Part shown: one piece after another, positions 15,956 through 17,811 of the stretch
How the letters are laid out: the number at the start of each line of letters is the position of its first letter
How positions within the stretch are numbered: position 1 is the first letter of the stretch
DNA from: Lactobacillus johnsonii
GTDB taxonomy: Bacteria; Bacillota; Bacilli; Lactobacillales; Lactobacillaceae
DNA: 64,000 nt
Assembly: GCF_013487865.1 (NCBI RefSeq)
Contig: NZ_CP047409.1
Span: forward strand, 186,001 to 250,000
Direction of reading: 5' to 3'
The notes under the pieces: generated by a model
The model's input: only the letters and a program-made list of their open reading frames with translations
Databases searched by the model: none
Told to the model about the DNA's origin: nothing
Program-made: the position numbers and the translations under genes

Positions 15956-16666
15956 ATGAAAAAGAAAGCATTAATTACAGCAGGAATATTGTCGACACTT
16001 TTATTAGCAGGCTGTAGTAATCAAAATACAAGTAGTGGAAACCATGATAGTAAGAAAAGTTCAGTAGTTTCTACTAAAAGGAGCTCGAATCAAAGCAGTC
16101 AGTCTAAAAAGAATACAGAAGAAATGGATAATGCACAATCTTCTAGCTCTAGTTCGGCTAATAAGAGTCAAAGTAGCTCTAGTGTAAAGCAATCAAATAA
16201 TAAATCTGAAAAAGAAACAAAAAATACTGCTAAAAGCAATAACAGTGATGACAAGATGAATTTTGATCAGATTGAGCAAGGAAACTATAGCAGCTTAGCT
16301 GGAACCTGAAAATCCACAAAAATTGTTGTTCGAGATGATGGAGAAGACAAGGTAAATACTGAAAATCCAATTACTTTATCTGTAACCTCAGATGCAATCC
16401 AAATGGTTGGTGGCGATAAAGTAGTCGTGAATAAAGATGGATTAAGTTATAACGATGATTTACATCCCTTAACCTTCCAAAAAACGCAGAATAGTTTGAC
16501 GGGCGCCTTAGATGGGGATGCTCCAATTAACTGGTCAGTTTCATTTTATCCAGCAGGTTCTACTGATTTTACAATTAATGGCGAAAAACAGGCTCCATCT
16601 TCAAAGAACTTAATTGTATTTTGGAGAAGCGGAATGAGTACAACCATGGTTTTTGAGAAAGAATAA
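15956..16666 (+). pseudogene. DUF6287-like lipoprotein gene broken by TGA
   Basis: The frame starts with a lipoprotein signal (lipobox LLAGC), continues through a Ser/Lys/Asn linker and enters a C-terminal domain with NFDQIEQGNYSSLAGT. The next codon (16307-16309) is TGA where DUF6287-type domains have Trp (SSLAGTWK). The same frame then continues uninterrupted for 119 codons to 16666. TGG-to-TGA is the simplest explanation. The truncated product would keep only signal and linker. A GTTGG-type weak ribosome site precedes the ATG. The domain name is from memory of the motif and is moderate. Confidence 0.82.
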
Positions 16667-16681
16667 TAAAGAGGTCACTAA

Positions 16682-17074
16682 ATGCATAACTACGAAAAAT
16701 TAAAGAAAAACAAAGCAAACTGGATTGTAGTTGCGGTAATAATTCTGGTAGCAATTATCTCCTTAATTGGATGGAGTAATTATAGATCGCATCATTTAGA
16801 TGGAACTTATACCAACCAAGCAACATTTTTAGGAGTGACCTCAAAAACAAAACTAGAATTTTCTAATGATAAAAAAGTAAAGATGACAAATGGTACGACA
16901 TCAGAAAATGATACTTATGAATTGTCTGGTAATGATTTAAAAATAAAAAATGAAGATGATGAAGTAATTATGCGTGCTAAGTTAGCCGATGATCGAAAAT
17001 CTTTTAAAGTAAAATCAATTGCTGGTGATATTTTCGGTATCCTCAAAAATATTGAATTTACCAGACAAAGCTAA
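16682..17074 (+). CDS. Small membrane-anchored protein with extracytoplasmic beta domain
   Basis: A 130-residue protein. A basic N-terminus and one transmembrane helix (about residues 14-35) precede an outside domain with alternating strands (DGTYTNQATFLGVTSKTKLEF, YELSGNDLKIKN) resembling small lipocalin-like or DUF domains of lactobacilli. The function is unknown. It starts 15 nt after the broken lipoprotein gene with AGAGG upstream, so the two probably shared a transcript. Confidence 0.75.
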   Translation: MHNYEKLKKNKANWIVVAVIILVAIISLIGWSNYRSHHLDGTYTNQATFLGVTSKTKLEFSNDKKVKMTNGTTSENDTYELSGNDLKIKNEDDEVIMRAKLADDRKSFKVKSIAGDIFGILKNIEFTRQS

Positions 17075-17086
17075 AATATATTAATG

Positions 17087-17115
17087 ATGACATCTCATTC
17101 AAAATCTTATATAAT
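17087..17115 (+). promoter_or_regulatory. Promoter of the plus-strand small RNA
   Basis: ATGACA (17087-17092), 17-nt spacer, TATAAT (17110-17115). It matches sigma-A consensus in 11 of 12 positions and predicts a start near 17122. Confidence 0.8.
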
Positions 17116-17118
17116 TGT

Positions 17119-17156
17119 AAAAGAAAAGGAGATAGAGAGTGCGAGTCTCTATCTCC
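17119..17156 (-). terminator. Terminator of the minus-strand RNA
   Basis: The 11-bp stem 17156-17146/17138-17128 read on the minus strand is followed by TTTTCTTTT. The same hairpin forms the 5' end of the plus-strand RNA. Confidence 0.7.
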
Positions 17157-17211
17157 AATCGTAACTTAAGATGACTGAGTGTGTGGCTAATCCTTGTGAT
17201 TAGCCTTTTTT
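17122..17211 (+). ncRNA. Predicted 90-nt small RNA, candidate antitoxin
   Basis: The predicted transcript starts with a hairpin with an 11-bp perfect stem (17128-17138 with 17146-17156). It continues through a short single-stranded middle and ends with a terminator, GGCTAATC (17185-17192) paired with GATTAGCC (17198-17205) plus T6. No ORF with a ribosome site is present. The RNA is fully complementary to the 3' end of the minus-strand transcript that carries the hydrophobic ORF, including its stop codon. This is the arrangement of antitoxin RNAs in Fst/par-like type I systems. The function is inferred. Confidence 0.65.
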
Positions 17212-17332
17212 GTTATTGCATAAGCAATTGCTGCACGGATTAGGAAAATACCCAATGCGTTTAAGACAATGCCGATAGCAATAGCAGCTATTATCAAGGC
17301 ACACCAACACTCCAGCCTATCCAAATTATCAT
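17187..17332 (-). pseudogene. Short hydrophobic peptide gene, candidate type I toxin (frame interrupted)
   Basis: GGAGG (CCTCC at 17341-17345) lies 8 nt before ATG 17332, which opens MIIWIGWSVGVP and stops at TGA 17294-17296. A second frame, overlapping at TTG 17297, continues with 36 residues: a hydrophobic helix LIIAAIAIGIVLNALGIFLI followed by a short segment ending KKANHKD, stop TAG 17187-17189. Adding one T in the CCTTG run would join both into a 48-residue membrane peptide. Either the gene has lost one base, or the two short frames are coupled. No homologue is recognised. Confidence 0.55.
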
Positions 17333-17381
17333 GGCTTCCACCTCCGTAACCTAAAATATATGTGAGGGGTGTAGAGCCATG
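17330..17381 (-). promoter_or_regulatory. 5' leader hairpin hiding ribosome site and start codon
   Basis: On the minus transcript CATGGCT (17381-17375) can pair perfectly with AGCCATG (17336-17330), which contains the AUG. Neighbouring CACC can also pair with the GGTG of the ribosome site. Such a leader stem is typical of type I toxin messages. Confidence 0.55.
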
Positions 17382-17429
17382 AAAAGTTACTAAGCTCTTA
17401 TATTAGCTATCTATAAAAGCCTAATAAAA

Positions 17430-17435
17430 ATTATA
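17430..17435 (-). promoter_or_regulatory. Extended -10 of the minus-strand RNA
   Basis: On the minus strand TGATATAAT is an extended -10 element (TATAAT at 17435-17430), predicting a transcript start near 17423. The -35 region is weak. Confidence 0.55.
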
Positions 17436-17477
17436 TCAAAATATGAATTGAGAATTTGTAGTATTAAACACAAAAAA

Positions 17478-17553: not shown

Positions 17554-17811
17554 TTACCAACTAGCTTTGCGCACGCCAGGAAGTTGTCCCTTGTGTGCTA
17601 ATTCTTTAAAGCGTAAACGTGACATACCAAACTTACGCATATAACCATGTGGTCTACCATCATGTAAATCACGGTTATGGTAGTGAGTTGGGTGAGCATC
17701 AAGCGGTAATTTTGCTAATGCTTCTACGTCACCAGCTTCTTTTAATTCATAGTATTTCTTGATTAATTCACGCTGTTTAGCAGCTTTAACGATTTTGGAT
17801 TTTTTTGCCAT
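17554..17811 (-). CDS. rpsN: 30S ribosomal protein S14, zinc-independent form
   Basis: Small-subunit ribosomal protein of 85 residues. It carries the S14 signature region [20 protein letters not shown] and the conserved C-terminus GVRKASW. It contains no cysteine, so it is the C-minus form that does not bind zinc. This type is usually encoded outside the spc ribosomal operon, as here. AAAGGAAAG precedes the ATG. In many Firmicutes this paralogue is induced by zinc shortage through Zur; I saw no Zur-box palindrome in the leader, so control is open. It is monocistronic with a strong terminator. Confidence 0.95.

What the first reader, a model, noticed from the sequence alone, without database searches (positions are those of the whole stretch)
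17087..17435. Convergent antisense RNA pair with a hydrophobic peptide: candidate new type I toxin-antitoxin locus
Seen in sequence: a near-consensus promoter drives a 90-nt plus-strand RNA with a 5' hairpin and a terminator. A minus-strand promoter drives a transcript of about 305 nt that covers it completely. The hairpin that starts one RNA acts as terminator of the other. On the minus transcript the start codon lies in a 7-bp leader stem (17330-17336 with 17375-17381) beside a strong GGAGG. The message encodes a short hydrophobic peptide with a basic tail. Known type I systems of the Fst/par kind share all these design features, but the peptide does not resemble Fst as I remember it.
Basis: partly seen in the sequence, partly recalled or inferred. 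Interest (0 to 1): 0.78.

Follow-up and report, generated by a model that had tools for sequence, protein, structure and literature searches.

The report
New Lactobacillus toxin–antisense RNA family
This stretch is one copy of a previously unannotated genetic element, scattered through Lactobacillus chromosomes and plasmids, in which a short antisense RNA probably keeps a small membrane-active peptide switched off, much like known bacterial "poison–antidote" RNA systems but built from an unrelated peptide and an unusual combination of RNA switches.

Summary
The locus is real and conserved. Two convergent transcripts overlap by about 90 nt. RNA II (+, ~17122-17211) has a -10 box, hairpin, exposed repeat and terminator. 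RNA I (-, ~17423-17118) has an extended -10, 5' hairpin, masked GGAGG/AUG and a terminator that is RNA II's first hairpin. The hydrophobic peptide (36 aa, TTG 17297 to stop 17187) lies in another frame; in the window its start overlaps the leader stop (TTGA). The element occurs in 33/75 genomes of the genus, on 14 Lactobacillus plasmids, and by RNA model in 19/40 sampled Lactobacillaceae genera. It was not seen outside that family, in phages, or in Pfam, NCBIfam, PHROGs, PADLOC or Rfam. Terminator hairpins, a 5'-end/3'-end pairing and the RNA II/leader repeat covary across 44 copies. The peptide frame is under purifying selection (pN/pS 0.42 versus 1.0 and 1.6 in other frames). Fst and Hol_Tox systems coexist in the genus at other places. 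Best reading: a new type I toxin-antitoxin family, combining 3'-overlap (BsrG/SR4-like), repeat-on-RBS (par-like) and leader-ORF plus 5'-3' closure (hok-like). Expression and toxicity are untested.

The parts
17087..17115 (+). promoter of RNA II (ATGACA-17-TATAAT)
   Evidence: the -10 is TATAAT or TAAAAT in 44 of 45 relatives at almost constant position
17122..17211 (+). RNA II, predicted antisense antitoxin RNA of about 90 nt
   Evidence: folds at z -4.8; covariance model R1 made from it finds the family in 19 of 40 Lactobacillaceae genera
17128..17156 (.). hairpin: 5' hairpin of RNA II and, on the minus strand, intrinsic terminator of RNA I (T run 17127-17118)
   Evidence: 9 of 11 pairs with compensatory changes, 99.4% of cells paired in 44 copies
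17160..17172 (+). direct repeat copy in RNA II (CGTAACTTAAGAT), predicted contact with the RNA I leader repeat next to GGAGG
   Evidence: 41 of 44 loci pair at 7 or 8 of 8 positions; repeat copies covary within loci
17185..17211 (+). RNA II intrinsic terminator; overlaps the last toxin codons and stop
17187..17297 (-). hydrophobic toxin ORF, 36 aa, TTG start 17297, MIIAAIAIGIVLNALGIFLIRAAIAYAITKKANHKD
   Evidence: start ATG/GTG/TTG 10-15 nt after GGAG in 36 of 45 copies; pN/pS 0.42 in frame versus 1.0 and 1.6 out of frame
17310..17313 (-). GGAG ahead of the toxin start, inside conserved GRCTGGAG (17317-17310)
   Evidence: GACUG pairs with 3'-end CAGUC with compensatory changes
17294..17332 (-). 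leader ORF MIIWIGWSVGVP*, ATG 17332-17330; its TGA overlaps the toxin TTG (TTGA)
   Evidence: ATG invariant in 44 copies; frame relative to toxin varies
17341..17345 (-). strong Shine-Dalgarno GGAGG of the leader ORF, masked by CACCCCTC
   Evidence: RNAalifold pairs it with the CACCCCTC element in the consensus
17345..17357 (-). leader repeat (ATTTTAGGTTACG), predicted RNA II target
17363..17371 (-). anti-Shine-Dalgarno element ACACCCCTC
   Evidence: CCCCTC nearly invariant; paired to GGAGGTG
17375..17390 (-). 5' arm GTAACTTTTCATGGCT, pairs with RNA I 3' end (complement of 17161-17176)
   Evidence: 10-pair consensus helix found by RNAalifold without guidance; compensatory changes
17392..17422 (-). 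5'-terminal hairpin of RNA I
   Evidence: stem of at least 8 bp in 39 of 39 copies tested despite different sequences
17430..17438 (-). extended -10 promoter of RNA I (TGATATAAT)
   Evidence: sequence; TANAAT-like hexamer in relatives
17118..17423 (-). RNA I, predicted toxin mRNA of about 305 nt, covering RNA II completely
   Evidence: folds at z -6.9; aligned in 44 copies

Best explanation
A type I toxin-antitoxin module of a family not previously annotated. RNA I encodes a 36-aa single-pass membrane peptide that would inhibit growth if overproduced (inferred). RNA II, transcribed from the opposite strand over the last ~90 nt of RNA I, is the antitoxin. In full-length RNA I the 5' arm (GTAACTT..ATGGCT) pairs with the 3' end (AGTCAT..AAGTTAC), and the leader GGAGG is masked by CACCCCTC. 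In the thermodynamic model this leaves both start sites largely closed. RNA II pairs perfectly with the RNA I 3' end, and its CGTAACTT can also pair with the leader repeat beside GGAGG. Together these would block the leader ORF and expose the duplex to RNase III. Translation of the leader ORF opens or feeds the adjoining toxin start, as mok does for hok, so the toxin is made when RNA II runs short, for example after loss of the locus or plasmid. Shown by sequence: anatomy, conservation, covariation, selection on the peptide. Inferred: transcription, pairing in vivo, coupling, toxicity, biological role.
For: Family in 33 of 75 genus genomes, often multicopy and dispersed, and on 14 Lactobacillus plasmids. 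Unguided RNAalifold gives the 5'-3' helix, the SD-masking hairpin and both terminators, with 18 of 38 pairs compensated; named-helix counts exceed all or nearly all shuffles on most measures. The RNA II repeat covaries with the leader repeat. The peptide frame is conserved, with hydropathy 2.6-2.8 over the first 19-residue windows and a KKANHKD tail. The toxin start is unpaired 0.28 in full-length, 0.42 in 3'-truncated and 0.60 in nascent RNA I, mean of 35 copies. Plasmid and tandem copies are common among type I systems.
Against: No transcript data and no toxicity test. The leader ORF does not keep one frame relative to the toxin (start offsets 35, 37, 38, 40, 44 nt), and in some distant copies the leader start itself is in frame with the peptide (L091, L134), so coupling may not be general. 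GGAG-to-start spacing of 10-15 nt is long. Part of the conserved C-terminus overlaps the RNA II terminator, so its conservation is not purely for protein. Nine of 45 copies lack an intact toxin frame with a start at the usual place.
Confidence: 0.78

Rival explanations
1. The RNA pair is a type I system, but the leader ORF is not a coupling device: the conserved strong GGAGG/AUG is a ribosome standby or decoy, and the toxin start with its own GGAG is controlled directly by the 5'-3' pairing (GACUG with CAGUC) and RNA II.
For: Leader frame is not fixed. GACUGGAG is conserved as nucleotides and pairs with the 3' end with compensatory changes. The toxin start opens when the 3' end is removed, while GGAGG masking does not change.
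Against: AUG invariant in 44 of 44 and GGAGGTG nearly so; leader codons 2-8 show pN/pS 0.53 in frame versus 1.15 and 1.37 out of frame; the toxin GGAG spacing is long.
Confidence: 0.35
2. The peptide is not a toxin but a small membrane regulatory peptide or signal, with RNA II as an ordinary antisense regulator.
For: No toxicity data; the chromosomal copy is single in the own genome.
Against: Presence on plasmids and in tandem arrays, repeated decay by nonsense, frameshift and IS insertion, and tight antisense design all fit type I systems better.
Confidence: 0.13
3. A non-coding mobile or repeat element whose open frame is incidental.
For: Dispersed, multicopy; C-terminal codons coincide with the RNA II terminator.
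Against: pN/pS 0.42 only in the peptide frame, near-constant 36-37 aa length with ATG, GTG or TTG at the same place, no transposase.
Confidence: 0.04
4. A divergent member of the Fst/par family.
For: Convergent RNAs, repeat at the ribosome binding site, masked SD (par features, PMC7472228, and own knowledge).
Against: No PF13955 match here although the model finds true Fst loci elsewhere in the genus; those loci match Rfam RefB11 and this one does not; no PXXXG motif and no tryptophan before the charged tail.
Confidence: 0.04

Closest known systems
bsrG/SR4, bsrE/SR5, txpA/RatA of Bacillus subtilis
   Same: 3' ends of toxin mRNA and antitoxin overlap over about 100 nt; short hydrophobic peptide; SD masked (PMC6562991)
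   Different: peptide unrelated by Pfam scan (the Hol_Tox model finds other loci in the same genomes); here a repeat also targets the RBS and a leader ORF precedes the toxin
par/Fst of Enterococcus pAD1 and Lpt of Lacticaseibacillus rhamnosus
   Same: convergent RNAs, direct repeat letting RNA II pair near the RBS, SD masked by a 5' structure (PMC7472228 and own knowledge)
   Different: peptide unrelated (no PF13955, no PXXXG, no W before the tail); two separate terminators instead of one shared; antisense RNA fully inside the toxin mRNA
hok/mok/sok of plasmid R1
   Same: leader ORF with the strong SD just before or overlapping the toxin ORF; long-range pairing of mRNA 5' and 3' ends predicted to keep the full-length mRNA closed (hok facts: PMC6562991, PMC7472228 and own knowledge)
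   Different: antisense RNA overlaps the 3' end, not the 5' leader; peptide and RNA sequences unrelated; 3' processing not shown here

Membership tests
type I toxin-antitoxin system (as a kind) | small hydrophobic peptide under coding selection | tested here: met
type I toxin-antitoxin system (as a kind) | conserved antisense RNA gene complementary to the toxin mRNA | tested here: met
   gene anatomy and covariation; transcription itself not testable
type I toxin-antitoxin system (as a kind) | peptide toxic when overproduced, RNA neutralises it | not testable with these tools
   needs expression experiment
Fst/Ldr (PF13955) | match to the Fst_toxin profile | tested here: not met
   no match here, true Fst loci found elsewhere in genus
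Fst/Ldr (PF13955) | P/D/S/TXXXG motif and (mostly) W before charged tail | tested here: not met
   alignment of 30 peptides; definition from PMC7472228
Fst/Ldr (PF13955) | Rfam RefB11 RNA that marks Fst loci in Lactobacillus | tested here: not met
   versus positive controls
Hol_Tox / BsrE-BsrH (PF16935) | match to the Hol_Tox profile | tested here: not met
   the model rings at other places of the same genome
txpA/bsrG | sequence relation to TxpA/BsrG peptide | tested here: inconclusive
   no significant Pfam, NCBIfam or PHROGs match; a dedicated TxpA model was not run
hok/mok/sok regulation | leader ORF whose translation is required for toxin translation | tested here: inconclusive
   leader ATG and SD conserved, overlap with toxin start in many copies, but frame not fixed
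hok/mok/sok regulation | 5'-3' closure of full-length mRNA, opened by 3' processing | tested here: inconclusive
   closure supported by covariation; processing not testable

The most novel reading that the evidence does not exclude
A new, Lactobacillaceae-wide family of RNA-controlled membrane toxins whose full-length mRNA is closed by 5'-3' pairing with a leader ORF gating the toxin, i.e. [quoted passage not shown]
Probability: 0.4. Interest if true: 0.78.

Novelty: new variant of a known kind. Interest (0 to 1): 0.64.

Why it matters
Lactobacilli are major gut, vaginal and food bacteria, and few type I systems are described in them (Fst/Lpt and holin-like peptides). This family is unannotated in every plasmid record inspected, present in about a fifth of sampled Lactobacillaceae genomes, and on plasmids. 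It may explain plasmid persistence and offer selection or containment tools. Its RNA design would test whether closed-mRNA regulation evolved more than once.

Tried and rejected
Programmed -1 frameshifting joining leader and toxin: rejected as general, because the start offset is 35 in some groups and 37, 38, 40 or 44 in others and no shared slippery site was seen by eye. Intramolecular stem of 5' arm with leader repeat (helix HA): covaries but crosses the AUG stem and is not populated in ensembles; read instead as RNA II pairing with the leader repeat, which has the same letters. Toxin as the 45-aa ORF from TTG 17324: rejected, the frame is closed there in most relatives. Rfam sub-threshold hits (snoRNA, miRNA) are noise. 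Viral contigs and phages: no copy. Literature search for the peptide motif or a Lactobacillus system of this kind: nothing in the held library; subscription papers were not covered.

Full report
Setting. The window is positions 186001-250000 of a 1,995,616-base Lactobacillus chromosome. At this locus it is 94-97% identical to L. johnsonii ATCC 33200 (matched through the 550,939-base contig). The locus lies between a small membrane-protein gene (16682-17074) and an ORF read as rpsN (17554-17811, minus) (gene name from own knowledge).

Anatomy. On the plus strand, a promoter (17087-17115) precedes a hairpin (17128-17156), a mostly unpaired repeat (17160-17172) and a terminator (17185-17205 plus T run). 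On the minus strand, an extended -10 (17438-17430) precedes a 5' hairpin (17422-17392), a 5' arm (17390-17375), an anti-SD ACACCCCTC, a repeat, GGAGG (17345-17341) and ATG (17332). RNA I ends at the hairpin that starts RNA II. RNA II therefore lies wholly inside RNA I.

Reading frames. The ATG in the leader stem gives only MIIWIGWSVGVP*. The hydrophobic peptide is a separate ORF, TTG 17297 to stop 17187. In 36 of 45 compared copies an ATG, GTG or TTG stands 10-15 nt after a conserved GGAG, and it normally opens a 36-37 aa peptide ending KKANHKD; one of the 36 (L010) is frameshifted. In the window the leader stop overlaps the toxin start (TTGA); other copies end a few nt away or read through the toxin in another frame. 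Across 175 pairs pN/pS is 0.42 in the peptide frame and 1.0 and 1.6 in the other two. For leader codons 2-8 it is 0.53 against 1.15 and 1.37, weaker evidence that the leader is translated.

Family. blastn finds the element in 33 of 75 genomes of the genus, in up to six matches per genome, including tandem copies, and on 14 Lactobacillus plasmids where nothing is annotated under the match. A covariance model of RNA II (R1) finds it in 87 of 398 sampled Lactobacillaceae genomes and 19 of 40 genera. In an order sample and a class sample all hits were in Lactobacillaceae. Most distant loci inspected by eye carry the same tail (AKAYAI[IT]KKAN[HR]K[DG]) or decayed remnants; a few weak ones show no recognisable peptide. 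Phages and viral contigs have none.

RNA evidence. On 44 copies the RNA I terminator hairpin has compensatory changes at 9 of 11 pairs. RNAalifold, given no structure, predicts the pairing of 5' arm and 3' end (10 pairs), masking of GGAGGTG by CACCCCTC, and both terminators, with 18 of 38 pairs compensated. Named-helix counts agree and fall to background when slid. The leader repeat and the RNA II repeat change together, for example AAGTTACG to AAACTACG in both. The 5' hairpin is kept in 39 of 39 copies with unlike sequences.

Mechanism. In thermodynamic ensembles of 35 copies the leader SD is largely masked in every form. The toxin start is most open in nascent RNA (0.60), less after 3' truncation (0.42) and least in full-length RNA I (0.28). 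I infer a closed full-length mRNA, RNA II acting both on the 3' end (duplex, RNase III) and on the leader repeat, and leader translation helping toxin translation. Only the structural parts are supported here; the order of events, coupling and toxicity are inference.

Relation to known systems. The Fst model and Rfam RefB11 find real Fst loci in the genus but not this one. The Hol_Tox model rings elsewhere, including twice in this genome outside the window. Scans of Pfam, NCBIfam, PHROGs and PADLOC give no match above a curated cut-off, only weak chance-level ones. Literature searches found Lpt, Fst and BsrE/H-like systems in lactobacilli but not this peptide. The architecture combines features of bsrG/SR4 (3' overlap), par (repeat at the RBS) and hok/mok (leader ORF, 5'-3' closure), as described in PMC6562991 and PMC7472228 and from own knowledge.

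Decay. In L. johnsonii ATCC 33200 the toxin ORF of this same locus is interrupted by an IS200/IS605-type element carrying tnpA- and tnpB-like ORFs. Other copies carry stops or frameshifts, several in the A run of the C-terminus. This fits a costly peptide but is also what neutral decay would give.

Verdict. The interpretation as a new type I toxin-antitoxin family is supported by comparative evidence at about 0.78.

Noticed in passing
15956-16309 and 16403-16666 (+): Lipoprotein-like ORF interrupted by an in-frame TGA near 16308; looks like one gene split by a nonsense change.
   Followed up: partly
L119 297-2396 (L. johnsonii ATCC 33200): IS200/IS605-type insertion (tnpA- and tnpB-like ORFs) inside the toxin ORF of the orthologous locus, a natural toxin knock-out with RNA II still present.
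   Followed up: yes
window 17204-17212 region and L012, L023, L033, L046, L059: A run of 6 to 8 A in the toxin C-terminus varies in length between copies and shifts the frame of the tail; possible slippage-based switching or simple decay.
   Followed up: no
L058 2523-2780: An annotated Fst-family toxin (WP_163589011.1) sits about 220 bp from a copy of this element on an L. johnsonii plasmid; two different type I systems side by side.
   Followed up: no
L133 and L017: Tandem arrays: several copies at about 240-460 nt spacing in one stretch (L. colini and a g10 genome).
   Followed up: partly
G000:C1:280275 and 285076 (outside the window): Two holin-like toxin (Hol_Tox, PF16935) ORFs in the same genome.
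   Followed up: no
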